Below are positions 1,581-40,090 of a DNA stretch of 64,000 nt, one piece after another (the stretch's first letter is position 1; each line of letters opens with the position of its first letter). The translations under genes and the position numbers were made by a program. The stretch is from Bacillus sp. OxB-1 (GTDB taxonomy: Bacteria > Bacillota > Bacilli > Bacillales_A > Planococcaceae). The stretch covers positions 1,189,001 through 1,253,000 of the forward strand of contig NZ_AP013294.1 in assembly GCF_000829195.1 (NCBI RefSeq), given 5' to 3'. The notes beneath the pieces are model-generated. The model ran no database searches, was not told the DNA's origin, and saw only the letters and a program-made list of their open reading frames with translations.

Positions 1581-1618
1581 AATGAAATTGGGGTGAAGAG
1601 TTTTCAATGAAGCGGTGG

Positions 1619-2430: not shown

Positions 2431-2528
2431 ACATATTAAAAACCTGTCGAAATCTCTCATCTTTCCGGCAGTGCCCAACACACTTCGTTAGGCATATACA
2501 TACAATTTATATGAAGAGGTGGTGAACG

Positions 2529-3350
2529 TTGAAAAAAGAGGAGACGGCTGTACGATATGATCCATTTGAGATCGAACAGCGGGAGTGGAAACAGAAGCAA
2601 ACGAAAGAGCGGTTAAAACGGATGCTAACGATCATTTCGCCCATTTTCCTCCTTGCCTTATGGGAGCTCTTGTCGAGGACCGGAATGATTGATGTTCGTT
2701 TTTTTCCGCCGCCATCTGCAATTATAGGCACGTTTTGGCAGATGCTGACAAGCGGTGTAATGGCTGGCCATATCGGAGTTTCGCTTTACCGGATCTTTGC
2801 CGGGTTCCTGGCCGGTGTCATTCCAGGCGTGGTCATTGGCTTGCTGATGGGTCTGTATTCACCGATCCGGCACTTCGTTTCCCCGATTGTGATGGCTCTC
2901 ATGCCGATTCCCACCTTGGCTTTGCTACCCATCATCATCATTTTATTCGGCATTGGTGATTTGTCGAAAGTTGTAACGATCGCGGGAAGCGTTTTTTTCC
3001 CCGTCGTCATCAATACAGCAGCCGGCGTCATCAATATCGACAAGATCTACCTTGATGTGGCACAAAACTATGGAGCTAGCCGATGGAATTTCTTCTGGAA
3101 GATCGCGCTACCTGGCGCCATGCCGGTCATGTTGGAAGGGATCCAAATGGGGCAGGCGATTGCACTTCTGACGATTGTGGCTGCGGAAATGATGGGAGCG
3201 ACTTCGGGAATCGGTTATTTGATATGGGTGTCGTATAAAGCATTCCTTCTTAAGGAAATGTATGTGGGCCTCATTCTGATATCATTTTTCGGGTATCTGT
3301 TCTCGTTAGTGCTTCGGGGAATCCAGAAGAAAATCCTGCCATGGAGGTGA
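2529..3350 (+). CDS. ABC transporter permease, sulfonate/nitrate/taurine type
   Basis: A 273-residue inner-membrane permease of the SsuC/TauC/NrtB family. About six hydrophobic segments lie after a charged N-terminus (residues 1-35); the EAA-type loop that docks to the ATPase is around residues 175-200 (DVAQNYGASRWNFFWKI). The TTG start at 2529 follows GAGGTGGTG at a good distance. The ATPase starts 4 bp after the stop and the binding protein follows, so this is a complete three-gene importer. The neighbouring rhodanese and dioxygenase genes make an organosulfur substrate attractive, but the family also moves nitrate, pyrimidines and other small molecules, so the substrate is open. Confidence 0.88.
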   Translation: MKKEETAVRYDPFEIEQREWKQKQTKERLKRMLTIISPIFLLALWELLSRTGMIDVRFFPPPSAIIGTFWQMLTSGVMAGHIGVSLYRIFAGFLAGVIPGVVIGLLMGLYSPIRHFVSPIVMALMPIPTLALLPIIIILFGIGDLSKVVTIAGSVFFPVVINTAAGVINIDKIYLDVAQNYGASRWNFFWKIALPGAMPVMLEGIQMGQAIALLTIVAAEMMGATSGIGYLIWVSYKAFLLKEMYVGLILISFFGYLFSLVLRGIQKKILPWR

Positions 3351-3354
3351 GCGG

Positions 3355-4143
3355 ATGGGTGGAAAAACAAAGATTGCAATACAGAATTTGACCAAAGCCT
3401 TCTATAAAAAGCAGGGGAGCGTCACAGCGCTTGATAATATCAACTTGACAATCGACGAAGGGGAATTCGTCTGTCTTGTCGGTCCGAGCGGCTGTGGCAA
3501 AACGACGCTGCTCCGAATTTTGGCCGGACTGGAAAGCCCGAGCATTGGAGACTTCACCATTGCCACGGCAGGAGAGGATCGGCCGCTTCAATCGATGGTG
3601 TTTCAGGAACGGGGAATCATCCCATGGCTCACCGTGGAGGAAAATGTGGCATTTGGTCTGAAAATGCGACATTTGCCAAAGAAACTCATACGAGAACGGA
3701 CCGACTATTATTTGAAAAAGACGGGGTTACAAAAATTTTCGTCCCTCTATCCGAAAGAACTTTCCGGCGGGATGAAGCAACGGGTCAGCATCGCCCGAGC
3801 CTTCGCCAATGATCCAGAAATCTTGCTAATGGATGAACCGTTCGCCGCGTTGGATGAGCAAAATAAGTTCATCTTGCAGGAAGAGCTTTTATCAATTTGG
3901 GAAGAAACCGGAAAGACGGTGCTTTTCATTACCCATAGCATCGATGAAGCTTTGCTTCTCGGTGACCGCATCCTATTGATGAGCTCCCAGCCCGGCCGGA
4001 TTGTAGAGGAGATCCGGGTAGATATGCCGCGTCCCCGTACAATGGAAGACATTCGAAAAGATCCGATCATGGCCAGTCGATTTGTTGACATTTGGCAACA
4101 TTTGCAAGATGAAGTGCAACGGTCCAGACGAGAAAAAGCGTAA
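3355..4143 (+). CDS. ABC transporter ATP-binding protein, SsuB/TauB type
   Basis: A 262-residue nucleotide-binding subunit. Walker A is GPSGCGKTT (about residue 43), the signature is LSGGMKQR, Walker B is ILLMDEPF and the switch histidine is in LFITHS. It energises the permease encoded 4 bp upstream. The family pattern (including the DRILLMSSQPGRI region after the switch) fits sulfonate/nitrate importers. The binding-protein gene starts 14 bp downstream. Confidence in class is high; substrate unresolved. Confidence 0.9.
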   Translation: MGGKTKIAIQNLTKAFYKKQGSVTALDNINLTIDEGEFVCLVGPSGCGKTTLLRILAGLESPSIGDFTIATAGEDRPLQSMVFQERGIIPWLTVEENVAFGLKMRHLPKKLIRERTDYYLKKTGLQKFSSLYPKELSGGMKQRVSIARAFANDPEILLMDEPFAALDEQNKFILQEELLSIWEETGKTVLFITHSIDEALLLGDRILLMSSQPGRIVEEIRVDMPRPRTMEDIRKDPIMASRFVDIWQHLQDEVQRSRREKA

Positions 4144-4157
4144 AGAGGAGAGATGAT

Positions 4158-5264
4158 GTGACAAAGTGGTTGAAGAATGGTTGGTTGACGATGGTCGTCG
4201 GACTTGTTCTGATCCTTGGGGCTTGTACTCCGAAAGAATCGTCCCAACCGAAACCCGCTCCTGCCCCTGTTCCGACACCAGAAACTCCGGCTGAGGAGGC
4301 AACCGATAAACTGACTCCGTTGGACGAACGGGTAAAAATCTTGATTGCCGAAGATGGCGCGGCTTCGGGTGCGGGATTCTATATCGCAAAAGAAAAAGGA
4401 TATTTTGAAGAAATGAATATCGAAGTGGATTTTGCCGATTTTGCGAACAGTGATGATATGTTGCCAGCCCTGGCTGCCGGAGAAGTAGACATTGCGGGCG
4501 GCGTGTCAACTGCATCTTTCTTTAACGCCATTGCGCAAGGAATCGACGTGCGCATCATTGCGGATAAGGGCCATAATATGCCGGGGAAATCGTATTTCAC
4601 GTTTGTCATCGGCAACCATATGGTCGATGTGATCAAGGATTATCCAGACTTCAAAGGAAAGAAAATTGCCGTCTCATCCCGTAACTCCATTGATGGATAT
4701 ATTTATGAAGAGATGTTGAAGCATGCCGGCCTCACAGAGGATGATGTGGAATACGTCCATATTGCGGACTTCGGGGCGATGTTGGGGGCGATTGACTCCG
4801 GTACGATTGATGCCGCGCTCAGTATCGAGCCGCTCATTGCACAAGGAGTCGCCAATGGGTTCCACCACCGGTTCAAAGATGCGACAGATTATGCGCCTGA
4901 ATCACAGATCGCCATGGTTCTCGCCTCGCCGAAGTTCATGGAAAACGATCCCGTATCCTTGCGTTTCATGGCTGCTTATTTAAAAGGAGTCCGTGACTAT
5001 AATGACGCGTTTTTCAAAGACATCGGCAAGGAAGAGGTCGTGGATATAATGGTGAAGCATACGGCCTTGAAAGACCCAGCCCTATGGGATCAGGTGAACG
5101 TCACCGGCCTAGATGCAAACGGCAAGATGTTCGTAGAGGATATAAAGAAACAATATGATACGTATAAGGCGAACGGGGCGATCCGGGGAGAAATCGATTT
5201 TGATAAAGCGGTTGACACTTCCTTGGCGGAAGAGGCCGTTGAAATATTGGGAGTGTATGAGTAA
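4158..5264 (+). CDS. ABC transporter substrate-binding lipoprotein, SsuA/NMT1 family
   Basis: A 368-residue lipoprotein: hydrophobic signal sequence with lipobox LGAC (lipid-modified Cys at about residue 23), a proline/alanine-rich linker (about 30-50), then a periplasmic-binding fold. The stretches GFYIAKEKGYFEE and LAAGEVDIAGG are typical of SsuA/ThiY/NMT1 proteins. GTG start at 4158 follows AGAGGAGA. It completes the importer with the two preceding genes. No residue visible here identifies the ligand; sulfonate is a context guess only. Confidence 0.87.
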   Translation: MTKWLKNGWLTMVVGLVLILGACTPKESSQPKPAPAPVPTPETPAEEATDKLTPLDERVKILIAEDGAASGAGFYIAKEKGYFEEMNIEVDFADFANSDDMLPALAAGEVDIAGGVSTASFFNAIAQGIDVRIIADKGHNMPGKSYFTFVIGNHMVDVIKDYPDFKGKKIAVSSRNSIDGYIYEEMLKHAGLTEDDVEYVHIADFGAMLGAIDSGTIDAALSIEPLIAQGVANGFHHRFKDATDYAPESQIAMVLASPKFMENDPVSLRFMAAYLKGVRDYNDAFFKDIGKEEVVDIMVKHTALKDPALWDQVNVTGLDANGKMFVEDIKKQYDTYKANGAIRGEIDFDKAVDTSLAEEAVEILGVYE

Positions 5265-5330
5265 AGTGAGCAAGAAGCGGCGTCATGATTCGGTCAGAAG
5301 TTTGGCCGGGTTATGGCGTTTTTTAGCTTT

Positions 5331-5660
5331 ATTCAGCGGAAGACTCCCACTTATATAGGTGGTGGGATAAATGCGGTTTCATCTCCTGTTCGGCGGGTAT
5401 TCAAATTCCCGCTGAATAGGGGAACTCAGACTAAAACCGCCGCATCCTGAAAGGTGCCTTAATTTCTGCAAAGATCGCAGAAATTAAGGCAAATCGAACC
5501 CTATGCTGTTCGATTGTCAACGTCTGAGTGACCAACTTCCTGTTGGCCCTAAGCCTCCGACGCACAGGACGTGGCGTTTGTGTCGGCGGACGGGTGTCAT
5601 GGATTTTTAAGGGAAGCCTAATTACAGTTTTTTCAGACAGCAAGAGATATAATTTTACTA
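5331..5660. repeat. folded non-coding element, possibly an IS200/IS605-type relic
   Basis: This gap holds no convincing gene but is full of dyads. An outer inverted repeat ATTCAGCGG (5331) / CCGCTGAAT (ending 5417) spans 87 bp. TCCCAC pairs with GTGGGA inside it. A perfect 13-bp stem CCTTAATTTCTGC / GCAGAAATTAAGG lies at about 5457-5490, and CCAAC/GTTGG and CCGACGCA/TGTGTCGG hairpins follow to about 5600. The same 87-bp inverted-repeat layout recurs at 40091-40177. The end segment (CGGA..GTCA..GATTTTTAAGGGA) recurs near 27.1 and 40.2 kb. Dense subterminal hairpins and a TTTAT just before the left arm recall IS200/IS605 non-autonomous elements and their guide RNAs; that identity is a hypothesis. 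Confidence 0.6.
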
Positions 5661-5684
5661 GACAGATGAAAAAGGAGTTGATTG

Positions 5685-5996
5685 ATGATGAATACGATTT
5701 TTATCGCTGGACATGCAAGGCTCCCATCAGGAATGGCGGCACAAAATATGTATGAAACACTCACGATTACGGCTGAAATTGATAAGAAGTACGGCGTAAT
5801 CGTGACGGCTAGTTGTACGTTGGCGACACTTCACGGAAGGGATTTTTTTCAACAAATTTTAAAAGGCCATAGTTTGCAGGATGGTATTGAAAAGCCTATC
5901 GCGGATATTAAAAATCATTACTTGGGAAAGGCGAGCAATGCGTTGGTCTCTGCGCTGAAGGACTTACATAAACAATATGAAAATCTCAAAGGTTGA
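5685..5996 (+). CDS. DUF3870 domain-containing protein
   Basis: A 103-residue protein that opens with the DUF3870 pattern (IFIAGHARLPSGMAAQ) and continues with a tract around TASCTLAT that is conserved in this family. The function of DUF3870 is not established. The start is ambiguous between 5685 and 5688 (ATGATG); both sit behind AAAGGAG. In Bacillales such genes often lie near acyl-CoA catabolic clusters, and here the cyclohexanecarboxylate-type cluster begins 280 bp downstream, but a terminator-like hairpin separates them. Family call good, role unknown. Confidence 0.8.
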   Translation: MMNTIFIAGHARLPSGMAAQNMYETLTITAEIDKKYGVIVTASCTLATLHGRDFFQQILKGHSLQDGIEKPIADIKNHYLGKASNALVSALKDLHKQYENLKG

Positions 5997-6191
5997 GAGA
6001 TGGCAGATTAAATATTTGAATAAATTAGACATTTCTATTTACATTTCAGTTTAGTTGTACTACTATTACTAGTAACACATCATGCAGAAACGTTGCCACG
6101 TTCACCACGCATGAGTTATGAGAGAAATTAAAAAGCCAAAATCTGCCTAGTCTGCAAAAACCCTTCGCCAGGGGTTGTGACGTAGACATGA

Positions 6192-6245
6192 AGCCAGTTC
6201 AATTTGACTCCAGCATGCCTGAAGTCTATTTGAATTGGCTTTTTA
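6192..6245 (+). terminator. terminator-like hairpin ahead of the acyl-CoA cluster
   Basis: AGCCAGTTCAA pairs with TTGAATTGGCT (one G-T pair) and is followed by TTTTT. A smaller hairpin (AACCC...GGGGTT) precedes it at about 6159-6177. It ends only about 30 bp before the first dehydrogenase gene. It could terminate the DUF3870 transcript or act as an attenuator in the leader of the next operon. The rest of 5997-6190 is AT-rich and shows no gene. Confidence 0.6.
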
Positions 6246-6277
6246 CATTTCCGATCAAAACGAAAAGGAGAATGGAT

Positions 6278-7480
6278 ATGAATTTTACTTTTACAGAAGA
6301 GCAGGAAATGTTGCGCAATACGGTACGAGGTTTTGTGGATAAGGAAATTATGCCGTACATCGGGGAATGGGATCGTGCCGGCCAGTCCGATCCAGCAATA
6401 TTCAAACGGCTTGCCGAACTCGGTTTGATGGGGGTGTGCATTCCAGAAGAATATGGCGGAAGCGGGATGGACTATAATTCATTAGCCATCGTTTGTGAAG
6501 AATTGGAACGGGGAGATACCGCTTTCCGGACGGCTGTTTCCGTCCATACGGGATTGAATAGTATGACGTTATTGCAGTGGGGGACGGAGGAACAAAAGAG
6601 GAGATATTTAATTCCCCAATCGAAGGGTGAGAAGATTGGGGCCTTCGGTTTGACGGAGCCCGGGGCCGGTTCGGATGTCGCGGCTCTGGAGACGACCGCG
6701 AAGCGCGAGGGGGATCACTATATCCTCAATGGTCAGAAGACCTGGATCTCTCTCTCTGACATTGCGGACAACTTCATCGTGTTTGCTTATACGGGTGACC
6801 GTGCAGAAAAACATAAAGGGATTTCAGCATTTATCGTAGAACGTAGTTGGGAGGGGTTCTCATCAAAAGCGATCAAAGGGAAATTGGGAATCCGCGCGGG
6901 GAATACGGGGGAACTTTTCTTTGAAGATGTGAAAGTCCCGAAAGAAAATCTGCTTGGCAAAGAGGGCGAAGGATTTAAAATTGCCATGGCAGCACTGGAT
7001 AACGGCCGTTTCACTGTCGCAGCCGGAGCTGTCGGGCAAATCATGGCTTGTCTGGAGGCGAGTGTGAACTATTGCCACGAACGTGAAACGTTTGGCAAAG
7101 AGATCGGCAAGCATCAGCTTGTCCAGCAGATGATTGCGAAGATGGAAGCGGGTTATCAGATGAGCAGATTGCTAGTGTACCGCGCCGGAGAATTAAAGAA
7201 TGCGGGCAAACGGAACACGAGAGAGACTTCGCTCGCCAAATGGCAGGCATGTGATTTTGCCAATCAAGCAGCGGATGATGCCGTACAAATCCACGGGGCT
7301 TACGGTTATTCGGATGAGTACCCGGTCGAGCGTTACTTGCGAAATTCCAAGGCGCCGGTCATTTATGAAGGGACACGTGAAATCCATACGATCATGCAGG
7401 CGGAATACGTACTTGGGTACCGGGAAGATAAGCTGCTGAATCAAATGCTCCCTGCCTGGAAAGTCGAACAGACCATCTAG
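6278..7480 (+). CDS. acyl-CoA dehydrogenase (first of cluster)
   Basis: A 400-residue FAD flavoprotein. The N-terminal helical domain starts TFTEEQEMLRN, the middle FAD/substrate strand has GLTEPGAGSD, and the C-terminal helices carry the catalytic base region VIYEGTREIH (Glu conserved). Start chosen at 6278 because AAGGAG ends 7 bp before it; the frame is open further upstream to 6188 through the terminator-like hairpin, which cannot be coding. The C-terminus resembles glutaryl-/pimeloyl-type dehydrogenases. It could oxidise pimeloyl-CoA or cyclohexanecarboxyl-CoA within the pathway encoded by the following genes; which step is not decidable by eye. Confidence 0.88.
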   Translation: MNFTFTEEQEMLRNTVRGFVDKEIMPYIGEWDRAGQSDPAIFKRLAELGLMGVCIPEEYGGSGMDYNSLAIVCEELERGDTAFRTAVSVHTGLNSMTLLQWGTEEQKRRYLIPQSKGEKIGAFGLTEPGAGSDVAALETTAKREGDHYILNGQKTWISLSDIADNFIVFAYTGDRAEKHKGISAFIVERSWEGFSSKAIKGKLGIRAGNTGELFFEDVKVPKENLLGKEGEGFKIAMAALDNGRFTVAAGAVGQIMACLEASVNYCHERETFGKEIGKHQLVQQMIAKMEAGYQMSRLLVYRAGELKNAGKRNTRETSLAKWQACDFANQAADDAVQIHGAYGYSDEYPVERYLRNSKAPVIYEGTREIHTIMQAEYVLGYREDKLLNQMLPAWKVEQTI

Positions 7481-7600
7481 TCCGCGGTAAAGGGGGAAGC
7501 CCGCTGACGATGCTTCCCCTTCCCAAAGACTTGATTGCAAACGGTTACATAACCCTTGGATCCGTTTAAATAAGACCATCTGATGGGAGTGTGGATGAAG

Positions 7601-8752
7601 ATGAATTTTGATTTTGATATTGAACAGGTGTCTTTTCAGGAGATGTTGCGGGACTTTTCACTGAAAGAACTCCTTCCCCAGTATACGAAATGGGATCGAG
7701 ACAATACCTTCCCTCGGCATTTATGGAAAAAGCTTGGGGAACTGGGCGTCAACGGACTTCGGATCCCGGAAGAATACGGGGGGAGCGGCGCGGATTGCGT
7801 CATGACCGGTATAGCAGCGGAGGAAATCGGCAGGGGAGATTTCAATTTGACGTATGCGGTCATGTTAAATGCCCTAGCGTCAGAGATCATTAGTAATCAC
7901 GCGACGGAAGAATTGAAGAAAACGTGGCTTCCTCAAATTGTGAGCGGCGAAAAAGTGGTCGGTGTCGCCATTACCGAACCGGCGGCGGGAACAGATGCAG
8001 GCGGCATCCTTTCCACTGCTAGGCGGAAAGGGGATCATTATATCCTGAACGGTGAAAAGTCCGGAATCAGCGCGGCGACAATCGGTGATATGTTCATTGT
8101 GTTTGCCAAGACCGACCTAGATGCGGGAAGCCGGGGGATCAGCGCATTCATCGTTCCTACCGATCTCCCGGGGGTGGAATGCAAAGGCTATGACGATATG
8201 GGGAATAAGCTGATCGGAAGAGGCTCCGTTTATCTGAATGATGTGGAAGTGCCGGCTGAGAATTTGATTGGCCTAGAGAATCGCGGGTTTGCCCAAGTGA
8301 TGAACGGTTTCGACTTAAGTCGTTTGCTCATCGGGCTCCAATGTGCCGGAGCGGCGTTCCAAAGCATTGATGAAACGATCGAACATGTGAAGAACCGGCA
8401 TTCATTCGGAAAACCATTGGCGACCTACCAGGGCGTCTCCTTTCCGATCGTTACCCATTACACCAACTTGGAATTGATCAAATGGCAAGCCTATCGCGGT
8501 CTATGGCTGCGAGATCAAGGAAGAAAGCATTCCAAAGAAGCGTCATCCGTGAAATGGCTCGGCCCTAAAATGAGTCAAGAAGCTATTCACGAGTGCATGT
8601 TGCTAAATGGGCATTATGCCTATACGGAGGAGATGCCGCTGGAGCAGCGCTTGCGGGATGTGATCGGTTTGGAAATCGGGGATGGTACGGCCCAGGCGAA
8701 TAAATTTGTCATTGCCAAAGAGATCATTGGAAAAGAGTATCGACCGTATTGA
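7601..8752 (+). CDS. acyl-CoA dehydrogenase with Asp at the usual base position (AliB-like candidate)
   Basis: A 383-residue member of the acyl-CoA dehydrogenase family with the FAD-domain motif ITEPAAGTDAGG. Where most relatives have IYEGT, this protein has IGDGT, placing Asp361 at the catalytic-base position. Non-standard bases are known among cyclohexanecarboxyl-CoA and cyclohex-1-ene-1-carboxyl-CoA dehydrogenases, which suits the BadI/BadH/AliA-like neighbours. I infer that this enzyme makes the ring double bond. Starts at 7595 or 7583 are also in frame; 7601 gives a terminus (MNFDFDIEQ) like that of the preceding paralogue. Confidence 0.82.
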   Translation: MNFDFDIEQVSFQEMLRDFSLKELLPQYTKWDRDNTFPRHLWKKLGELGVNGLRIPEEYGGSGADCVMTGIAAEEIGRGDFNLTYAVMLNALASEIISNHATEELKKTWLPQIVSGEKVVGVAITEPAAGTDAGGILSTARRKGDHYILNGEKSGISAATIGDMFIVFAKTDLDAGSRGISAFIVPTDLPGVECKGYDDMGNKLIGRGSVYLNDVEVPAENLIGLENRGFAQVMNGFDLSRLLIGLQCAGAAFQSIDETIEHVKNRHSFGKPLATYQGVSFPIVTHYTNLELIKWQAYRGLWLRDQGRKHSKEASSVKWLGPKMSQEAIHECMLLNGHYAYTEEMPLEQRLRDVIGLEIGDGTAQANKFVIAKEIIGKEYRPY

Positions 8753-8783
8753 TTTCTCAAAATAGGAAATGGAGGACGACAAC

Positions 8784-9584
8784 ATGGAATTACAAGATGT
8801 GATTTATAAAAAAGAGGATGGGGTGGCAACGATCACCATCAACCGACCAGAAGTGTATAATGCTTTTCGCTCTCTGACAGTGAAGGAGCTGATTTGGTCC
8901 TTTCGGGATGCGTGGGATGACAACCAGATTGGGGCCGTTATTTTAACTGGTGTCGGAGAGAAAGCATTTTGCACGGGAGGCGACCAAAGCAAAAAGGGGG
9001 ATGATAGCGGATATGATGGTTCTGGCGGGCTTGGCGGCGGTATCGGAATGGAAATCGAAGCATTGCATCATACGATCCGGAATATTCCCAAACCGGTCAT
9101 TGCGGCAGTGAATGGCTATGCCATCGGAGGCGGGCATGTGCTTCACGTCATCTGTGATTTGACCATTGCATCCGAAACGGCCATCTTCGGCCAGACCGGC
9201 CCGAAAGTGGGCAGCTATGACGCCGGCTTCGGCTCGGCTTATTTGGCCCGCGTTGTCGGAGAGAAAAAAGCAAGGGAAATTTGGTATTTATGCGAGAAGT
9301 ACTCCGCGGAAGAGGCAAAGGAAATGGGACTGGTGAATAAAATCGTACCGGCTTCAGAATTGATGGCCGCTGCGGAGGATTGGGCGAGAAAAATTGCTGA
9401 AAAGAGCCCGACAGCCATCAAGATGTTGAAATACTCATTCAACGCAGATTCGGCAAACATCAGTGGTATTACACAAATGGCGATGGGCAGCCTAGCCATG
9501 TTTTACAACACGGAAGAATCCGCGGAAGGACGAGATGCTTTTTTGGAGAAACGCCCTGTGGACTTTAAAAAATTTAGAGGATAG
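8784..9584 (+). CDS. badI: BadI-like 2-ketocyclohexanecarboxyl-CoA hydrolase
   Basis: A 266-residue crotonase-fold enzyme. It shows the BadI/MenB signature set: FCTGGDQS, GYAIGGGHVLHVICD, FGQTGPKVGS and AREIWYLCEKYS. In Rhodopseudomonas palustris BadI hydrolytically opens the ring of 2-ketocyclohexanecarboxyl-CoA to pimeloyl-CoA; MenB makes naphthoate in menaquinone synthesis and is its closest paralogue. Context decides for BadI: the AliA-like ligase and BadH-like dehydrogenase follow directly, and no other men gene is present. Start 8784 follows GGAGG at 8 bp; an upstream in-frame ATG (8769) overlaps that site. Confidence 0.82.
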   Translation: MELQDVIYKKEDGVATITINRPEVYNAFRSLTVKELIWSFRDAWDDNQIGAVILTGVGEKAFCTGGDQSKKGDDSGYDGSGGLGGGIGMEIEALHHTIRNIPKPVIAAVNGYAIGGGHVLHVICDLTIASETAIFGQTGPKVGSYDAGFGSAYLARVVGEKKAREIWYLCEKYSAEEAKEMGLVNKIVPASELMAAAEDWARKIAEKSPTAIKMLKYSFNADSANISGITQMAMGSLAMFYNTEESAEGRDAFLEKRPVDFKKFRG

Positions 9585-9603
9585 CAAATAAGGAGGAGTA
9601 ATA

Positions 9604-11247
9604 ATGGGATATGAGACAATCTTAGACTCTGCTTATCTGAATAACTATCAATCAAAGTGGCCGAATAAAACAATTTTGGACTACCTAAATGAACAAATTG
9701 CAAAGTCTCCGGATAAAGTTGCGATTATTGATAAAAAAAGCCGCTATACGTATAAAGAACTTGGTGAACTGGTCGATCGCGTTGCACTCGGACTATTGGA
9801 AATCGGTTTGAAAAAAGGAGACGTCATTTCATTCCAACTTCCCAATTGGAATGAGTTCGTCATTTTATATTTTGCCGCTACGCGTATCGGAGCAATCAGT
9901 AATCCATTGATCCCGATTTACCGGGAACGTGAAATTGGCTTTATGGTGAAGATGGCAGAGTCCAAAATGATTGTCATTCCCGACGAGTTCCGAGGGTTCC
10001 AATATGCGGAGATGATTGGCAAACTACTGCCGCAATGGCCTTCCATGGAACATGTCTATGTACTGGGGGACAAGATCCCGCCAGGCATGAAGTCTTTCGA
10101 TTCCTTACTTGCAGAGCCATGGGAAAAACGGAAGGATGTCGCCGTACTTGATGAAATTGTCCATGATCCGAATGAAGTGACGGAAATCATCTTCACTTCA
10201 GGAACGACAGGAGATCCAAAAGGAGTTATGCATACGCATAATACGATTAATGTCGCGGCTTCCTATTGGATCGATCATCTATCGTTGACACCTGAGGATA
10301 CTATTTTCATGGCTTCGACGTTCGCGCATCAGACAGGATTTCTTTATGGTGTCAATTTGCCGATCATCTATGGAGGAACGGGTGTCTTCCAGGATATTTG
10401 GAATCCGGAAGAATTCCTTGAATTGATTGAGAAGGAAAACATCACCTTCACGGCGAGTGCTACGCCGTTTTTACAAGATACTGTCAAAGCGGCAAAAGCG
10501 AGCACAAATGATGTGAGCTCCCTTCGGATTTTCATTGCAGTCGGGGCGCCGATCCCGCGTGTTCTCGTGAAGGAGGCACGCAAAGCGTTGCCATGTGCCA
10601 TCTTGACGGGTTGGGGGCAAACGGAAAATGGCATGGTGACCATTACCTTGGTGGACGATACGGAAGAAAAAATTACAGGAACGGATGGGAAAGCGTTTCC
10701 GGATATGGAAGTGAAAGTGGTCGATCCATCGGGGAACACATTGCCGCCTCATGAAGAAGGCTATCTGATGTGCAAAGGTCCCGCCTTGTTTGTCGGCTAT
10801 TTGAAACGAATTACAGAAACGAAAGACGAATTCCAGGACGGCTGGTTCACTACAGGGGATAGCGCGGTAATGGATGAGGACGGCTATATTCGAATTACCG
10901 GACGTGTCAAAGACATCATCATCCGGGGTGGTGAAAATATCCCAGTTGCGTACGTTGAAAATGTCCTCTATGAACATCCGGATATTGAAACCGTTCAGCT
11001 CGTGGCGATCCCGGATGATCGTCTTCAAGAGAAGGCCTGCGCTGTCGTCAAGATGAAAGAGGACAGGGCTCCTCTGACGATGGAGAAAATACAAAAATTT
11101 TTGGAGGAAAAAGGGATCGCCAAGCAATATTGGCCGGAGTATCTTGAATTGATGGACGAGCTGCCGACTACTGCGAGTGGCAAAATCCAAAAATTCAAGC
11201 TCCGCGAAATGATAAATGAAAAAATCTCTACTCATACGATGGGGTAG
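9604..11247 (+). CDS. aliA: AliA-like cyclohexanecarboxylate-CoA ligase
   Basis: A 547-residue AMP-forming acyl-CoA synthetase (ANL superfamily). Motifs in order: FTSGTTGDPKGVMHTH (phosphate loop), GWGQTENG, TTGDSAVMDEDGYI, GRVKDIIIRGGENI and the C-terminal catalytic lysine in TASGKIQKFKLRE. The early region (FQLPNWNEFV, NPLIPIYRERE, DEFRGF) resembles cyclohexanecarboxylate-CoA ligase AliA. It would activate the free acid with ATP and CoA in the cytosol and so start the pathway. AAGGAGGAG precedes the ATG. Other cyclic or aromatic acids remain possible substrates. Confidence 0.8.
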   Translation: MGYETILDSAYLNNYQSKWPNKTILDYLNEQIAKSPDKVAIIDKKSRYTYKELGELVDRVALGLLEIGLKKGDVISFQLPNWNEFVILYFAATRIGAISNPLIPIYREREIGFMVKMAESKMIVIPDEFRGFQYAEMIGKLLPQWPSMEHVYVLGDKIPPGMKSFDSLLAEPWEKRKDVAVLDEIVHDPNEVTEIIFTSGTTGDPKGVMHTHNTINVAASYWIDHLSLTPEDTIFMASTFAHQTGFLYGVNLPIIYGGTGVFQDIWNPEEFLELIEKENITFTASATPFLQDTVKAAKASTNDVSSLRIFIAVGAPIPRVLVKEARKALPCAILTGWGQTENGMVTITLVDDTEEKITGTDGKAFPDMEVKVVDPSGNTLPPHEEGYLMCKGPALFVGYLKRITETKDEFQDGWFTTGDSAVMDEDGYIRITGRVKDIIIRGGENIPVAYVENVLYEHPDIETVQLVAIPDDRLQEKACAVVKMKEDRAPLTMEKIQKFLEEKGIAKQYWPEYLELMDELPTTASGKIQKFKLREMINEKISTHTMG

Positions 11248-11269
11248 GCAAAGGATGGGGGAATGTCCG

Positions 11270-12016
11270 ATGGAAAAGCGGATTGCATTTGTGACAGGTG
11301 GCGGGAGCGGCTTGGGAAGGGAGATTGCCCGAGTCCTGGCCTCGAAAGCGATGAAGGTCGTAGTGGCGGATATCAATAAAGAAAATGCCGAGGAAACGGT
11401 TGCGCTGATTGAGGAAGAGGGCAATGAAGCGAAAGCGGTCTATTGCGATGTCTCCGATTTGGAAGTCGTACAGAACGCCGTGAAGGAATCTGTCCAACAT
11501 TACGGAAAAATCGATGTGTTGATCAATAATGCGGGATGGGACAAAGTGGAGCCGTTCCTCCAGAGTGAGCCTGATACTTGGCAGAAAATCATCAATATTA
11601 ACCTGCTTGGCCAAATCAATACTTGCAAAGAAATTTTACCTCTTATGATTGAAAATGGCTATGGAAAGGTGGTCAATATCGCTTCGGATGCTGCCCGGGT
11701 CGGATCGAGCGGGGAAGCGGTCTATTCCGCCGCAAAAGGTGGTGTTGTAGCGTTCACGAAGACGTTGGCGCGTGAGATGGCACGTCATAAATTGAACGTG
11801 AATTGCGTCGCTCCTGGACCTGCCGATACACCTCTATTCCAAAAGATCGGGGAAGAATTCGAAGGGCTTGCCAACTCTTTGGAAAAAGCGATCCCCCTTC
11901 GCCGATTGGCACAGCCAAAAGATATCGCGGGGGCAGTCGCCTATTTCGTTTCGGAAGATGCGGAGTATGTGACAGGCCAAACGCTCTCCGTCAGTGGCGG
12001 TTTGACCATGATTTGA
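11270..12016 (+). CDS. badH: BadH-like 2-hydroxycyclohexanecarboxyl-CoA dehydrogenase (SDR)
   Basis: A 248-residue short-chain dehydrogenase/reductase. TGGGSGLG (about 9-16) binds NAD; INNAGWD follows; catalytic Ser139, Tyr152 and Lys156 are all present (NIASDAARVGSSGEAVYSAAK region). The DAARVGSSGEAVY stretch and the ending SVSGGLTM are characteristic of BadH, which oxidises 2-hydroxycyclohexanecarboxyl-CoA to the ketone used by BadI. Start 11270 follows GGGGGA at 8 bp; the open frame extends back into the ligase gene. It sits 22 bp after that gene and is clearly in the same operon. Confidence 0.85.
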   Translation: MEKRIAFVTGGGSGLGREIARVLASKAMKVVVADINKENAEETVALIEEEGNEAKAVYCDVSDLEVVQNAVKESVQHYGKIDVLINNAGWDKVEPFLQSEPDTWQKIININLLGQINTCKEILPLMIENGYGKVVNIASDAARVGSSGEAVYSAAKGGVVAFTKTLAREMARHKLNVNCVAPGPADTPLFQKIGEEFEGLANSLEKAIPLRRLAQPKDIAGAVAYFVSEDAEYVTGQTLSVSGGLTMI

Positions 12017-12108
12017 TGTTGGGGGAGCCGTCACTACATTGGATAGTGCGGCTTTTCTTCTTTTGTAAGGTTCGTTCAAGCAGCTATGCACGCATGGGAG
12101 GGATGGAA

Positions 12109-12858
12109 ATGGATCTTGGCATAAAGGGAAGGACAGTGTTGGTTACCGGTGCTGCAAAAGGAATCGGAAGAGCGATTGCGACAGCGCTGGCGAAAGAAGG
12201 TGCCCATGTGGCGCTTCACTACCAAACTTCGGAAGAGGAAGCGCAGGAAACGAAGGAGATGATCTGGAATTCAGGCGGCCAGGTTACCTTGGTGAAAGGG
12301 GATCTTGCTTCGCTGGAAGATGTGCAGCATATGAAGGATACGATTGAGTCGGAGCTCGGCTTTGTCCATTCGATTGTAAATAATGCCGGCTATGCACAGT
12401 ACAAACCTTTTTTTAAATACAGCCCCAATGAATGGAGACGGGAGGTAGATGTGTGCCTCTATGGAGTTGTCCATCTGGCACATGTGTTCATTCCAGATAT
12501 GATAGAACAAAAGGGAGGTAAATTGATAAATATTATTGGAGATTCTGCCCGTACCGGTGACCGGAATTTGATCATATCTGCAGCTGCCCGAAGCGGCGCG
12601 GTCAGTTTTCTAAAATCCTTGGCGCAAGAGGTCGGACGCCATCAGATTCAATGTAATACGGTTTCGCTAGGACTGACCGATCAAGGGCAGTCGTATGAAG
12701 CTGCTACATTGGATAAAATTTTAAAACAATATCCATTGAAACGGCTCGGAACACCGGATGATGTAAAGGGGGCCGTCCTTTTTTTATTATCGTCTTTGTC
12801 AGATTGGATCACTGGCCAAGTGCTGTCTGTCAATGGAGGACAAAGCATGATGGATTAA
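12109..12858 (+). CDS. SDR-family protein lacking the catalytic triad
   Basis: A 249-residue Rossmann protein with an intact nucleotide motif TGAAKGIG (about 14-21) and NNAG (91-94). All three catalytic positions are changed when aligned to the BadH-like neighbour: Ser to Gly144, Tyr to Ser157 and Lys to Arg161. It therefore cannot be a standard SDR dehydrogenase. It may be a pseudoenzyme, a subunit partner for the preceding SDR, or a relative with another chemistry. The gene is uninterrupted, has a GGGAGG site 8 bp before 12109, and sits in the operon between two normal enzymes, so it looks maintained. In-frame ATGs at 12094 and 12103 are alternatives. Confidence 0.82.
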   Translation: MDLGIKGRTVLVTGAAKGIGRAIATALAKEGAHVALHYQTSEEEAQETKEMIWNSGGQVTLVKGDLASLEDVQHMKDTIESELGFVHSIVNNAGYAQYKPFFKYSPNEWRREVDVCLYGVVHLAHVFIPDMIEQKGGKLINIIGDSARTGDRNLIISAAARSGAVSFLKSLAQEVGRHQIQCNTVSLGLTDQGQSYEAATLDKILKQYPLKRLGTPDDVKGAVLFLLSSLSDWITGQVLSVNGGQSMMD

Positions 12859-12888
12859 TCCATATACAAATAGAATGGAGGAAATGCA

Positions 12889-14040
12889 ATGCTGGATACA
12901 TTTGCGCCCGAAATCGATCAAATCAAACAAATGGTTCGAAACTTCGTGGACAAGGAGGTAGAGCCTTTTGCCCAACAAATTGAAGAGGAAGACCATATTC
13001 CTGGACACTTAGTTGAGACAGCGAAAGAACTAGGCTTGTTTGGAATGAGCATACCGGAAGAATACGGTGGAATCGGCTTAAGCGTTGTTGGAAAAGCAGC
13101 CGTTCTAGGGGAATTGGGACGTTCCAGTAATGGCTTTGCCACTTTGATTAGCGCTCACACCGGAATTGGAAGTGTCGGCTTGGTCCGATTGGGTTCCGAA
13201 AGACTAAAACAGAAGTATTTGCCGGATATGGCAATCGGTAAAAAGATCGGCGCGTTCGCCCTCTCGGAGCCGGGAGCGGGATCGGATGCGACAAACTTAG
13301 CGACGATTGCAGAAAAGCGCGGAGATAAATGGATACTCAATGGGACCAAACATTTCATCACCAATGCACCGATCGCAGATGTTTTTACAGTGTTCGCTTT
13401 GACGGATAAAGAAAAAGGGGCAAAAGGGGGAATCACTTCATTCGTCGTAGAAAAAGAGTTTCCCGGGCTGACCATCGGCAAGCAGGATAAAAAAATGGGG
13501 TTGCGTGGCTCCTATACGGCTCAGCTGATTTTCGATAATTGTGAGGTGCCGGAGGAGAATGTCATTGGAGAAGTCGGCATGGGATATATGTCGGCATTGA
13601 AAATTTTAGGCGAAGGCCGGGTGGGGCTTGCCGCCAGAGCAGTCGGGTCCTGTGAAAAGTTAATTGAATTATCCGCTTCTTATGCGCAAGAACGAGAGCA
13701 ATTCGGAAAACCGATCGCAGAAAATCAGGCGATTCAATGGATGCTGGCCGATATGGCGACGGAAACGGAAGCGGCCCGCATGCTTATGCTGAAAGCTGCG
13801 AACCTGTTGGACGTCGGAAAGAAAGCGATTAAAGAAGCCGCTATGGCCAAGTTATATGCCTCCGAAGTATTTAACCGGGTCGCCGATAAAGCGGTTCAGA
13901 TCCATGGCGGCATGGGATATGTATCCGACTATCCAATTGAAAGGTTTTACCGGGATGCACGAATCACGACCATTTACGAAGGGACGAGTGAAGTGCAGCG
14001 GATTATTATCGCTCGGGATGTGTTGCAAGCAAACCAATAA
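12889..14040 (+). CDS. acyl-CoA dehydrogenase (third of cluster)
   Basis: A 383-residue member with the full set of family motifs: FALSEPGAGSD in the FAD-binding strand, QIHGGMGY near the flavin, and TTIYEGTSEVQR with the catalytic Glu. It resembles short/medium-chain acyl-CoA dehydrogenases. In this operon it most likely acts on pimeloyl-CoA or the next beta-oxidation intermediates after ring opening. GGAGG lies 7-8 bp before the ATG. Step assignment is inferred from order and from the other dehydrogenase having an atypical base. Confidence 0.88.
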   Translation: MLDTFAPEIDQIKQMVRNFVDKEVEPFAQQIEEEDHIPGHLVETAKELGLFGMSIPEEYGGIGLSVVGKAAVLGELGRSSNGFATLISAHTGIGSVGLVRLGSERLKQKYLPDMAIGKKIGAFALSEPGAGSDATNLATIAEKRGDKWILNGTKHFITNAPIADVFTVFALTDKEKGAKGGITSFVVEKEFPGLTIGKQDKKMGLRGSYTAQLIFDNCEVPEENVIGEVGMGYMSALKILGEGRVGLAARAVGSCEKLIELSASYAQEREQFGKPIAENQAIQWMLADMATETEAARMLMLKAANLLDVGKKAIKEAAMAKLYASEVFNRVADKAVQIHGGMGYVSDYPIERFYRDARITTIYEGTSEVQRIIIARDVLQANQ

Positions 14041-14092
14041 AAAATGTCGGTGGAGTTGGTTCTTAGTGTGAAGGATGGAGTGAAAATAGAAA

Positions 14093-14971
14093 ATGGAAAT
14101 AAATAACGTAGCTGTCGCAGGTTCTGGCGCGATGGGGTCGCAAATTGCGATGGTCTGTGCGCTTGCGGGTTATCCAGTCGTGTTACAGGATATTTCACAG
14201 GAAAGCCTCCAGCATGCGAAGCATTTTCTGGAAAAGCAGATAGAACGGCGGGTCGAAAAAGGGAGATACTCAAGGAGAGAGGTCGGGGAGGCATTCAGGT
14301 GCCTCACCTTTACGACCGAAATTGAAGAAATGGCGAATGCCAATATTGTCATTGAAGCGATTGTTGAAAAATTGGATGCCAAGCGAGAGTTGTTTACGAA
14401 GCTCGACCGGTTTGTTGCCCCCGATACGATATTGGCAACAAATAGTTCGACCATCGTCAGTTCGAAAATAGCCGATGCTGTCGGCCGGCCGGAAAATGTT
14501 TGCAATATCCATTTTTTTAATCCTGCCCTTGTCATGGAGCTGGTTGAAGTGGTGAAAGGTCCTCATACTTCTGAGGAAACTGCTGCAAAAAGTGTGGAAT
14601 TCGTGGAGAGCATCCGGAAAGTGCCCGTGTTGCTCAACAAGGAGATTTCAGGTTTCATTGCCAATCGAATTCTTGGAAAATTAACAGATGAGGCGATCTT
14701 TCTCTATGAAAATGGCTATGCGACGCCGGAAGAGATCGATCTTGCCTGCATGAAAGCATTGAATCATCCGATTGGTCCATTCGCACTGATGGATTTGACT
14801 GGCTTGGATGTACATTACCTCGTTCGGAAGCAGCGGTATGACGAAAGTGGTGATGAGAAGGAAAAGCCGTCGCGGACTGTTACTGAAAAAGTGGAAAAAG
14901 GCGAACTTGGCAAAAAGACGGGAAAAGGATTTTATGATTACGACGCCCAAGGCAATTGGTTGGGCCGTTAA
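14093..14971 (+). CDS. 3-hydroxyacyl-CoA dehydrogenase
   Basis: A 292-residue NAD-dependent enzyme of the 3-hydroxybutyryl-CoA dehydrogenase family. The N-terminal Rossmann domain has GSGAMGSQIA (about 10-19), the conserved TNSST and HFFNPALVMELVEVV (catalytic His) follow, and the C-terminal dimerisation domain is complete (DLTGLD...GKGFYDY). It would carry out the third step of beta-oxidation on the pimeloyl-CoA derived chain. Its ribosome binding site is weak. The next gene starts 29 bp downstream. A thiolase is missing from this cluster; one is encoded in the paa region. Confidence 0.88.
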   Translation: MEINNVAVAGSGAMGSQIAMVCALAGYPVVLQDISQESLQHAKHFLEKQIERRVEKGRYSRREVGEAFRCLTFTTEIEEMANANIVIEAIVEKLDAKRELFTKLDRFVAPDTILATNSSTIVSSKIADAVGRPENVCNIHFFNPALVMELVEVVKGPHTSEETAAKSVEFVESIRKVPVLLNKEISGFIANRILGKLTDEAIFLYENGYATPEEIDLACMKALNHPIGPFALMDLTGLDVHYLVRKQRYDESGDEKEKPSRTVTEKVEKGELGKKTGKGFYDYDAQGNWLGR

Positions 14972-15000
14972 ACGCAAACCACAGGCAGGAGGGAAGGGGA

Positions 15001-15783
15001 TTGAAAAGCTATCGCAATATCATCGTCGAAAAAAAGAATAAACTAGCCTATTTGATCATTAATTTACCGGAACAACGAAATGCCTTGAGTAAGGAAACGC
15101 TGGATGAAATGAGGAACGCACTAGAATGGCTGAAAGAAGACGACGAGACCCATTGCGTCATTTTTACGGGACAAGGGGATACATCATTTGCGGCAGGAGC
15201 AGATATTAAACAGCTGGAAAACCGCCGGCCGATGGATGTCTTTTCCGTCGGAAGCATGCAGGACGTCTACGATTATATCGAAGCGTATGACAAACCAACT
15301 GTCGCCATGGTAAATGGATTTGCACTTGGCGGTGGATGCGAGCTCGCGATGGCCTGTGATATTCGGATCGCTTCCGCTACTGCAAAATTTGGGCTTCCCG
15401 AACTGAATCTTGGCGTCATCCCAGGGGCAGGGGGCACACAGCGGCTGGCCCGTCTGATCGGTAAAGGAAAAGCGATTGAATTGATTCTGACAGGAAAAAT
15501 TATCACTGCGGAAGAAGCCGAAAGAATCGGTCTGATTTCCGAATATGTTTCTCAAGATCGGTTGCAAGAGGCGGTGGAAGAAACGGCAAACTGTATCATA
15601 ACAAAAGGTCCATTAGCTGTGAAGCTTGCTAAAATGGTTATTCACACAGGATTTGATACGGATATGAAGGCAGGTTTGCTCATTGAAAAGCTTGGACAAG
15701 CCGCCTTATATTCGACAGAAGATAAAATGGAGGGCACTCGTGCCTTTTTAGAGAAACGCACACCTGAATTTATTTCAAAATAG
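15001..15783 (+). CDS. enoyl-CoA hydratase, BadK-like candidate
   Basis: A 260-residue crotonase. Both hydratase glutamates are visible, in ALGGGCELAMACD and LPELNLGVIPGAGG, so it should add water across an enoyl-CoA. BadK hydrates cyclohex-1-ene-1-carboxyl-CoA in the Rhodopseudomonas pathway and is otherwise an ordinary crotonase, so this could be the ring hydratase, the straight-chain hydratase, or both. TTG start at 15001 follows AGGAGGGA at 6 bp; the frame is open back into the preceding gene. It is the last gene of the cluster and is followed by a terminator. Confidence 0.85.
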   Translation: MKSYRNIIVEKKNKLAYLIINLPEQRNALSKETLDEMRNALEWLKEDDETHCVIFTGQGDTSFAAGADIKQLENRRPMDVFSVGSMQDVYDYIEAYDKPTVAMVNGFALGGGCELAMACDIRIASATAKFGLPELNLGVIPGAGGTQRLARLIGKGKAIELILTGKIITAEEAERIGLISEYVSQDRLQEAVEETANCIITKGPLAVKLAKMVIHTGFDTDMKAGLLIEKLGQAALYSTEDKMEGTRAFLEKRTPEFISK

Positions 15784-15800
15784 CTTTTTAGCTGGTAAAT

Positions 15801-15848
15801 GAAGAAACAACCTGTACTTGTCCTAAGTCACAGGTTGTTTCTTTTTCG
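15801..15848. terminator. terminator at the end of the cyclohexanecarboxylate-type cluster
   Basis: AAGAAACAACCTGT pairs with ACAGGTTGTTTCTT and is followed by TTTTTC on the plus strand. It overlaps the last codons of the convergent efflux gene. Confidence 0.85.
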
Positions 15849-18154: not shown

Positions 18155-19042
18155 TCAGTCGCCGTACATCATTTTCAGCTCATTGATAAACACTTCGACG
18201 TGCCGTTTTTCTCCCATCAACGGAGAGTGCAAAGTGGAAAACACCCTTTTTTGCGGTATGACATCCACCTTCAATGGAACGAGCTCCCCCCGATCCAGCG
18301 CCCTTTTTGCCGTGTGGACCGAAACGGCGGCAATGCCGAGGCCGCTCAGCAAGGCTTGTTTCACGCCTTCATTGGACCCGAAAATGGTACAGGACGGGTT
18401 GACCTGGCCGATGGACCGAAGCAGATAATCCGTAAATTGACGGGTGCCGGACCCTTTTTCACGCATGACCCAATGGGCTGATTGGAGGTCGGTCAACTCG
18501 ACATGGTCCAGTTTGGCAAGCGGATGTGTATTCACTGCCACCAGAATCAGTTCGTCATACATGAACGGCTTGATGATCAATTCCTTTGCAGGCACACCCC
18601 CTTCGATGCAACCGACATCGCATCGCAGTTCGCGGACCGCCGTCTCTACATCCTCGGTATTTTCAATCGTCACTTCGGCTTGCAAATGAGGAAATTTCCG
18701 GTGGAGCACTGTCAATACTTCCGGCAGTAAGTATTCCCCGATTGTATAGCTTGCAGAAATCCGCAGCTTGCCGCTCACTTCTCGATGCTTCCATAAAATC
18801 TCTTCCTTTGTCTTCTCCGCCAGTTTTAGCAATTGGATCGCTCGTTCATAGAGCAATTCCCCCTCTGGCGTCACGTGAAAAGTTCGATGGGAACGGATGA
18901 GCAGGGGGACGTTCAACTCGCTCTCCAAGTTTTTAATATGAAGACTGACGGTCGGCTGTGCGAGATTCAGCTTCTTTGCCGCCTTCGTGAAGTTCTGGTG
19001 TTCCACAACGGTTATAAAGGTATTCAATTCTTCCAACAGCAT
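18155..19042 (-). CDS. LysR-family transcriptional regulator, CysL-like
   Basis: A 295-residue regulator with an N-terminal winged helix-turn-helix (about 1-60, [23 protein letters not shown] region) and a C-terminal effector-binding domain (about 90-295). It is transcribed divergently from the YeiH-type transporter, the classic LysR arrangement, so it probably controls that gene and itself. CysL (YwfK) of B. subtilis and YeiE of E. coli are plausible relatives. The neighbouring sulfur genes make a sulfur-related effector likely but unproven. Confidence 0.85.
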
Positions 19043-26040: not shown

Positions 26041-26116
26041 GCTTATAAAAAATTTCTGTTTTCAAACCTACCATACTTATGCTGATTTATCAAGTCTCGG
26101 AAGGCGGGAATGTTTT

Positions 26117-38899: not shown

Positions 38900-38926
38900 C
38901 GGGACGTTAAGGGAGGAAAGAAGATT

Positions 38927-40083: not shown

Positions 40084-40090
40084 TTAACTG

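What the first reader, a model, noticed from the sequence alone, without database searches (positions are those of the whole stretch)
6278..15783. Cyclohexanecarboxylate-to-pimeloyl-CoA pathway in a Bacillales genome
BadI-like hydrolase, AliA-like ligase and BadH-like SDR are encoded in a row, together with three acyl-CoA dehydrogenases, a 3-hydroxyacyl-CoA dehydrogenase and a BadK-like hydratase. These are the enzymes of the Rhodopseudomonas ali/bad alicyclic route. Benzoyl-CoA reductase genes are absent, so the likely substrate is a saturated or partly saturated ring acid. The route is best studied in Proteobacteria.
Basis: partly seen in the sequence, partly recalled or inferred. Interest (0 to 1): 0.72.

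Follow-up and report, generated by a model that had tools for sequence, protein, structure and literature searches.

The report
Ring-acid degradation island in Bacilli
A bacterium of the Bacillus class carries a block of nine enzyme genes that likely opens and burns cyclohexane-type ring acids, a route so far studied mainly in Proteobacteria, and many related copies in the same phylum sit beside a sigma-54 activator gene and promoter element that probably form a different on-switch.

Summary
Window 6278-15783 encodes, in order, a glutaryl-CoA-dehydrogenase-like enzyme, AliB, BadI, AliA and BadH homologues, a second SDR, a third acyl-CoA dehydrogenase, a 3-hydroxyacyl-CoA dehydrogenase and an enoyl-CoA hydratase. 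AliB carries the GDG motif published for cyclohexanecarboxyl-CoA dehydrogenases. The BadI homologue lies outside MenB (100/100 support) and the genome has a separate menB beside menH, but it is a third lineage, and NCBI's menB model accepts it. All four core proteins miss NCBI's equivalog cut-offs. The order aliB-badI-aliA-badH recurs in 16 of 20 loci of one named-genome scan. The block is absent from the same site in eight same-genus genomes that lack aliB, so it is likely an acquired island; the upstream ABC transporter is not part of it. New here: 17 of 19 aliB loci of that scan have a sigma-54 enhancer-binding protein gene, with a -24/-12 element upstream of aliB in 16. In a second set 2 of 18 have the gene, both with the element. 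The window lacks both. The published survey of bad-ali clusters describes MarR and TetR regulators. Function is untested. New variant of a known kind.

The parts
5265..15822 (.). likely inserted island between ssuA and the DMT-transporter gene (edges approximate)
   Evidence: nine same-genus contigs have ssuA and the DMT gene as neighbours (gap 11 to 3,715 bp) with neither DUF3870 nor any of the nine enzyme genes between
5685..5996 (+). DUF3870 protein, function unknown
   Evidence: PF12986, E 3.6e-32; near the GcdH-like gene in the window, L015, L031, L103 and L105
6278..7480 (+). acyl-CoA dehydrogenase, likely glutaryl-CoA dehydrogenase (glutaryl-CoA to crotonyl-CoA)
   Evidence: Arg aligned with an Arg of glutaryl-CoA dehydrogenase 3mpi, YEG motif; 82% paralogue follows aldehyde and saccharopine dehydrogenase genes
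7535..7550 (+). cre-like site (catabolite repression, a lead only)
   Evidence: perfect match to a recalled consensus; 3 in window versus 0.27 expected; present in near-identical L105 but upstream of aliB in 0 of 18 other loci, plus strand scanned
7601..8752 (+). AliB: predicted cyclohexanecarboxyl-CoA dehydrogenase
   Evidence: TIGR03207 392.5 bits; GDG motif; groups with annotated AliB, SH-aLRT 100
8784..9584 (+). BadI-type ring-opening hydrolase (predicted 2-ketocyclohexanecarboxyl-CoA hydrolase)
   Evidence: outside MenB at 100/100; intermediate model scores; between aliB and aliA in 17 of 20 loci
9604..11247 (+). AliA: predicted cyclohexanecarboxylate-CoA ligase
   Evidence: TIGR03208 573.1 bits, next 477.5; groups with AliA references, SH-aLRT 92
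11270..12016 (+). BadH: predicted 2-hydroxycyclohexanecarboxyl-CoA dehydrogenase
   Evidence: TIGR03206 290.3 bits, next 234.3; groups with SDRs of reference bad clusters, weak SH-aLRT 69
12103..12858 (+). second SDR (role unknown)
   Evidence: separate SDR branch from BadH
12889..14040 (+). general acyl-CoA dehydrogenase, candidate pimeloyl-CoA dehydrogenase
   Evidence: YEG motif, not the YGG reported for pimelyl-CoA dehydrogenases
14093..14971 (+). 3-hydroxyacyl-CoA dehydrogenase
   Evidence: PF02737 and PF00725
15001..15783 (+). enoyl-CoA hydratase, candidate BadK and/or 2,3-dehydropimeloyl-CoA hydratase
   Evidence: PF00378; a related hydratase directly follows badH in L020, L021 and L023

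Best explanation
The block at window 5265-15822 is a likely acquired catabolic island that is predicted to convert cyclohexanecarboxylate, or a close ring acid, to pimeloyl-CoA by the ali/bad route and then towards crotonyl-CoA. Predicted steps, all inferred from homology: AliA makes the CoA ester; AliB puts in the 1,2 double bond; the hydratase (15001-15783) adds water; BadH oxidises the 2-hydroxyl; the BadI homologue cleaves the 2-ketoacyl ring to pimeloyl-CoA; the third acyl-CoA dehydrogenase, the hydratase and the 3-hydroxyacyl-CoA dehydrogenase carry out one beta-oxidation round to 3-oxopimeloyl-CoA; a thiolase from elsewhere (eight full-length Thiolase_N matches exist, one in the paa cluster of this window) gives glutaryl-CoA; the first acyl-CoA dehydrogenase gives crotonyl-CoA. 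Shown directly: gene content, order, motifs, tree positions, the separate menB, and absence of the block at the same site in same-genus genomes. Also shown: many related Bacillota loci have a sigma-54 enhancer-binding protein gene and a -24/-12 element by aliB, both missing here; that these control the operon is inferred.
For: Conserved order aliB-badI-aliA-badH in 16 of 20 loci. AliB GDG motif in the window, in 16 of 18 related rows (the other 2: a split gene and one that ends before the motif) and in 3 of 3 annotated AliB; GDG is the motif given for cyclohexanecarboxyl-CoA dehydrogenases (passage of PMC8360864). AliB, AliA and BadH group with references at SH-aLRT 100, 92 and 69. BadI homologue outside MenB at 100/100, and a separate menB next to menH. 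Glutaryl-CoA-dehydrogenase-like residues and a paralogue behind a saccharopine dehydrogenase gene. L103 holds ligase, AliB, BadI, BadH, thiolase, 3-hydroxyacyl-CoA dehydrogenase, ACAD3, hydratase, GcdH-like and CaiB genes in one 17-kb stretch. Public sources already name several Bacillaceae AliB homologues cyclohexanecarboxyl-CoA dehydrogenase. The pathway is experimentally established in Aromatoleum (PMC9795900, sections and passages read).
Against: No core protein reaches its NCBIfam equivalog cut-off. The BadI homologue scores about equally with menB and badI models and passes the menB cut-off (349.6 versus 342.7); AU tests leave its sister group open (p 0.244 and 0.36). ACAD3 has YEG, not the YGG reported for pimelyl-CoA dehydrogenases. 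No thiolase and no dedicated regulator in the island. One hydratase would have to serve two steps or be helped from elsewhere. Two actinobacterial rows inside the AliB group have ADG, not GDG, so the motif is not fixed in the group. The exact ring acid cannot be told from sequence.
Confidence: 0.8

Rival explanations
1. The route acts on a substituted or partly unsaturated ring acid (monoterpene-derived such as perillate, or another naphthenic acid), not cyclohexanecarboxylate itself.
For: A badKHI cluster without aliAB was suggested for monoterpene degradation in Aromatoleum (PMC9795900), and a Cupriavidus plasmid has badI, an SDR and a ligase with no annotated aliB in the 17 kb seen; sequence does not fix ring substituents.
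Against: The window has AliB with the GDG motif, needed only if the ring enters saturated at C1-C2 (inference); AliA is nearest the cyclohexanecarboxylate ligase model.
Confidence: 0.25
2. The BadI homologue is a second MenB or a promiscuous crotonase, and the cluster is ordinary branched or medium-chain acyl-CoA oxidation.
For: It passes the menB model cut-off TIGR01929 and is 54-55% identical to the genome's MenB.
Against: MenB-type rows are a separate clade at 100/100; true menB lies elsewhere beside menH; the protein sits between aliB and aliA in 17 of 20 loci; it lacks the C-terminal FPRFP tail seen in three of the four MenB references.
Confidence: 0.07
3. The island mainly supplies pimeloyl-CoA for biotin synthesis.
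For: A bad-ali cassette fed biotin synthesis in an E. coli bioH mutant (PMC9795900, passage).
Against: GcdH-like and beta-oxidation genes lie in the same block, which points to full breakdown; biotin genes were not examined.
Confidence: 0.05

Closest known systems
bad-ali cluster of Rhodopseudomonas palustris and Aromatoleum sp. CIB (PMC9795900)
   Same: AliA, AliB, BadH and BadI homologues clustered, with beta-oxidation genes nearby
   Different: no MarR-type BadR; BadI homologue of another lineage; gene order aliB-badI-aliA-badH (Aromatoleum has an aliB-badH-badI-aabA operon)
bad-ali clusters of Rhodococcus and Corynebacterium (PMC9795900, Figure 6 legend)
   Same: Gram-positive hosts
   Different: those carry a TetR-type regulator; many Bacillota loci carry a sigma-54 enhancer-binding protein, the window neither
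MenB, 1,4-dihydroxy-2-naphthoyl-CoA synthase
   Same: same protein family, 52-60% identity to the BadI homologue; shared Ser/Asp and Tyr positions (role recalled)
   Different: separate clade, other gene context, no FPRFP tail
glutaryl-CoA dehydrogenase (PDB 3mpi; human GCDH)
   Same: an Arg aligned with 3mpi and the catalytic Glu in the first acyl-CoA dehydrogenase
   Different: YEG as reported for decarboxylating enzymes rather than the VEG of 3mpi; below the NCBIfam NF045552 cut-off (374 of 470)

Membership tests
bad-ali cyclohexanecarboxylate pathway | AliA, AliB, BadH and BadI homologues encoded together | tested here: met
bad-ali cyclohexanecarboxylate pathway | AliB with GDG active-site motif | tested here: met
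   motif assignment from PMC8360864 (passage)
bad-ali cyclohexanecarboxylate pathway | AliB, AliA and BadH group with reference cluster proteins | tested here: met
   SH-aLRT 100, 92 and 69 (the last weak), quick trees; each group also holds 1-3 other rows
bad-ali cyclohexanecarboxylate pathway | BadI groups with proteobacterial BadI rather than MenB | tested here: inconclusive
   outside MenB 100/100, but sister group unresolved
bad-ali cyclohexanecarboxylate pathway | NCBIfam equivalog cut-offs (an annotation threshold) | tested here: not met
   0 of 4; the Marinobacter reference BadI, beside an annotated aliB, also misses (457 of 467.6)
bad-ali cyclohexanecarboxylate pathway | MarR (Gram-negative) or TetR (Gram-positive) regulator in the cluster (usual, not essential) | tested here: not met
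   between 2529 and 15783 one search lists no ORF of 120 aa or more apart from the scanned genes and ORFs overlapping them
bad-ali cyclohexanecarboxylate pathway | BadK ring hydratase | tested here: inconclusive
   one hydratase present, generic model scores
bad-ali cyclohexanecarboxylate pathway | growth on cyclohexanecarboxylate dependent on these genes | not testable with these tools
   needs culture
MenB | clusters with MenB in a tree | tested here: not met
MenB | encoded with menaquinone genes | tested here: not met
   island context; true menB beside menH, TIGR03695 over its cut-off, and a menD end
MenB | NCBIfam TIGR01929 cut-off | tested here: met
   349.6 of 342.7, although PRK07396 is missed (367.6 of 380)
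glutaryl-CoA dehydrogenase (first acyl-CoA dehydrogenase) | Arg for the distal carboxylate and YEG catalytic motif | tested here: met
   alignment with 3mpi; YEG from PMC8360864, Arg94/Tyr from PMC3169403; that the 3mpi Arg equals human Arg94 is recalled, no direct alignment with human GCDH was made

The most novel reading that the evidence does not exclude
In a large part of the Bacillota, cyclohexanecarboxylate catabolism is a mobile sigma-54 regulon: a dedicated enhancer-binding protein, usually encoded beside aliB, fires a -24/-12 promoter some 43-80 bases upstream of it, a third control scheme next to MarR and TetR, built on a third lineage of ring-opening hydrolase that databases would call MenB; the window's island has shed this switch.
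Probability: 0.7. Interest if true: 0.55.

Novelty: new variant of a known kind. Interest (0 to 1): 0.5.

Why it matters
It extends an alicyclic-acid pathway, known from Proteobacteria and Actinobacteria, to many spore-former genera, where the key ring-opening enzyme passes NCBI's menB model and so may be overlooked. It gives a checkable regulatory model (activator gene plus promoter element) and candidate genes for breaking down naphthenic-acid-type compounds in Gram-positive hosts.

Tried and rejected
Upstream ABC transporter (SsuC/B/A-like, 2529-5264) as the uptake system: rejected as part of the unit, because it sits next to the DMT gene in same-genus genomes without the island. LysR gene 18155-19042 as regulator: not pursued; it lies beyond the DMT and PepT genes (these names, and YeiH for the next gene, are by eye). 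Sigma-54 element upstream of the window's aliB or of the first acyl-CoA dehydrogenase: none (best scores 6 and 9 of 13), and no close enhancer-binding protein in the genome (best 40%). MaoC-like protein as a replacement for BadK: not supported, as both occur together in several loci. Rooting the BadI/MenB tree with crotonases: failed through very long branches. Fixed-column comparison of MenB and BadI: only 6 columns; the window matches BadI in 3 (one of them a shared gap), MenB in 0, neither in 3. The cre-like site occurs upstream of aliB in 0 of 18 other loci (L028 has a match inside aliB). A random-segment control for the promoter motif (27 of 360 segments at 10 or more) was poor because segments could contain the real elements; it was replaced by shuffles (4 of 3600) and other gene starts (4 of 329, one of them the L029 element). 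No structure was predicted.
Full report
Observation. Family scans give the expected domains. Among NCBIfam models the best match is the ali/bad one for three of the four core proteins: AliB 392.5 bits (next 279.5), AliA 573.1 (477.5), BadH 290.3 (234.3). For the fourth, MenB PRK07396 (367.6) leads badI (353.6) and menB TIGR01929 (349.6). None of the four reaches its ali/bad equivalog cut-off. In 261 genomes of the order and 398 evenly drawn from the class no AliB match reaches that cut-off either, so it seems tuned to other phyla.

Is it BadI or MenB? The genome (one 3.59-Mb contig) has another protein, 55% identical, at C1:9817-10590, next to menH (TIGR03695, 289.5 bits, over its cut-off) and the end of a menD; it scores 441 for menB and 325 for badI. 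An annotated proteobacterial BadI scores 312 and 481. The window protein (350 and 354) and the two Bacillota relatives scanned (358/341 and 357/346) lie between. In a 35-row tree the five MenB-type rows (four references and L033) split from the 30 others at 100/100; proteobacterial BadI is a clade at 100/99; the 22 remaining Bacillota rows hold together only weakly, 65/30, although 11 of them did so at 99/97 in a smaller tree. With an outgroup, AU tests reject neither BadI nor MenB as nearest kin (p 0.244 and 0.36; outgroup branches very long). So it is not MenB by tree, but a third lineage, and its function rests on context.

Other core enzymes. The dehydrogenase at 7601-8752 has IGDGT at the catalytic position, as have 16 of 18 related rows (of the other two, L029 is a split gene and L031 ends before the motif) and 3 of 3 references annotated AliB; the two other window dehydrogenases have YEGT; two actinobacterial rows that fall inside the AliB group have ADGT. 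A published comparison gives GDG for cyclohexanecarboxyl-CoA dehydrogenases, YEG for glutaryl-CoA and several others, YGG for pimelyl-CoA dehydrogenases (PMC8360864, passages read). Quick trees on 37 chosen loci (up to 60 best hits each) group window AliB (56 rows), AliA (29) and BadH (48) with the references at SH-aLRT 100, 92 and 69; the groups also take in three, one and one other rows. Public sources already call several Bacillaceae AliB homologues cyclohexanecarboxyl-CoA dehydrogenase (best 120 of 6171 hits seen), so the enzyme name itself is not new there.

Lower pathway. The dehydrogenase at 6278-7480 aligns an Arg with an Arg of the glutaryl-CoA dehydrogenase 3mpi, which chains 4l1f and 5ol2 lack, and has YEG where 3mpi has VEG. 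In GCDH an Arg (94 in human) and the Tyr of this motif are reported to bond to each other, the Tyr contacting the distal carboxylate (PMC3169403, passages); that the aligned Arg is this one is recalled. Its 82% paralogue (C1:1348479) follows an aldehyde dehydrogenase and a saccharopine dehydrogenase gene, which fits lysine breakdown through glutaryl-CoA. ACAD3 has YEG, so it is not of the published YGG pimelyl type. No thiolase lies in the island; the genome has ten Thiolase_N matches, nine over the cut-off, of which eight are full-length and one partial, one of the eight being in this window's paa cluster (45148-46347). Benzoyl-CoA reductase families PF06050 and PF01869 have no match in the genome; class II enzymes were not searched.

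Distribution and mobility. One scan of named genomes gave 20 loci (peptide patterns from the window's BadI, so biased to close relatives). The order aliB-badI-aliA-badH is in 16 (L015-L026, L028, L031, L032, L034); L027 lacks a detected BadH; L029 and L030 are rearranged; L033 is a MenB-type protein alone. AliB at E 1e-90 or better is in 7 of 261 genomes of the order and 13 of 398 of the class, own genome included in both. Of 18 further loci from those genomes (L107 repeats the L015 contig, by length; L105 is 94-100% identical to the window over the genes compared), seven have the same order; L093 and L102 have aliB-badI-badH-aliA; in five (L094-L097, L101) only distant ligases (28-37%) accompany aliB-badI-badH; L098-L100 are rearranged; L109 is cut by the contig end. 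In nine chosen same-genus contigs (of 57 genomes with the DMT gene) ssuC-ssuB-ssuA is followed by the DMT gene with 11 to 3,715 bp between, and neither DUF3870 nor any of the nine enzyme genes is there; the one distant SDR match lies outside the gap. Eight of the nine are not among the seven aliB holders; the ninth (G222) has aliB on another contig. The island is therefore likely inserted, though loss elsewhere is not excluded, and the transporter is not part of it.

Regulation. In the first set 17 of 19 aliB loci have an enhancer-binding protein gene (for L017: sigma-54 activation, AAA lid and Fis domains; GAFSGA read by eye) of 43-100% identity to that of L017, in most directly upstream of aliB and in 14 preceded by a MaoC-like gene; L015 and L016 have none. 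A -24/-12 element (consensus recalled) starts 43-59 bases before aliB in 15 of 18 loci scanned, scoring 11-13 of 13 in 14 and 9 in L026. L030, added later, has one (11 of 13) 80 bases before aliB; in L029 the element precedes an aliA-activator reading frame. L016 has an element-like remnant that has lost the -12 GC. Dinucleotide shuffles of the same 110-base stretches reach 11 in 4 of 3600; the starts of 329 other genes in these loci reach it in 4, one being the L029 element (there the count of real loci, also 15 of 18, includes L016's remnant and not L026). In the second set, not used to find the element, 2 of 18 loci have a close activator (L103 beside aliB, L104 about 7 kb away) and both have the element (12 and 11); none of the other 16 exceeds 9, two of which (L106, L108) have distant activator matches of 27-28%. 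So the association of gene and element is tight, but the switch is far from universal. The window has neither, though sigma-54 itself is encoded. It does have a cre-like site ending 51 bases before the aliB start, shared only with the near-identical L105. Control by the activator is inferred.

Literature. PMC9795900 (abstract, sections 3, 21, 22 and passages read) proves the route genetically in Aromatoleum, including aerobic growth, and lists clusters in Proteobacteria, Rhodococcus and Corynebacterium with MarR or TetR regulators; no Bacillales strain is named in the Figure 6 legend. Searches pairing the pathway with Bacillus, Bacillaceae or Firmicutes listed no paper whose title or abstract start describes such a cluster in Bacillota: searches (2 of 2 listed; 4 of 4; 20 of 5,409; 15 of 2,865), listings only; the library lacks most subscription journals. 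Two sigma-54 surveys searched by term (PMC12316311, PMC3162934) do not contain 'cyclohex' in the main text; the former reports acyl-CoA dehydrogenases enriched among sigma-54 targets in Bacilli and Clostridia, which agrees with the present finding and makes sigma-54 control of such genes in general not new.

Verdict. The finding is real and the interpretation sound; it is a new variant of a known pathway with a new regulatory association, function untested.

Noticed in passing
window 8784-9584; L015 and L017 homologues: NCBIfam's menB model TIGR01929 accepts all three Bacillota ring hydrolases scanned (350-358 bits, cut-off 342.7), so automatic annotation may call them MenB.
   Followed up: yes
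window 5685-5996; L015, L031, L103, L105: DUF3870 gene near the GcdH-like gene, with a CaiB-type CoA-transferase also near in L015 and L103: a lead for the function of DUF3870. One paper in the library holds the term (listing only).
   Followed up: partly
L030 (Thermincola ferriacetica MAG) 2025-5192: An activator gene (43%) and two -24/-12-like elements upstream of an AliB homologue in family Thermincolaceae.
   Followed up: partly
L029 (Brevibacillus massiliensis) 6893-8776 and 8808-9957: One reading frame joins the first 186 residues of AliA to the activator, and aliB is in two frames: rearranged or misassembled locus.
   Followed up: no
L093 (contig length equals that of Alicyclobacillus dauci): aliB-badI-badH-aliA in what looks like Alicyclobacillus, a genus known (recalled) for cyclohexyl fatty acids; L094-L097 and L101 have a similar set with a distant ligase.
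   Followed up: no
window 1600-2428: Eight copies of a 104-bp tandem repeat (94% match) giving spurious long ORFs on the minus strand.
   Followed up: no
window 37946-48325: Phenylacetate (paa) cluster with PaaA, PaaC, PaaX and its own thiolase and hydratases.
   Followed up: partly
window 5415-5546, 25956-26055, 26894-27009, 52520-52564: Bacillaceae-1 RNA inside the island's left edge; purine, SAM and preQ1 riboswitches elsewhere.
   Followed up: no
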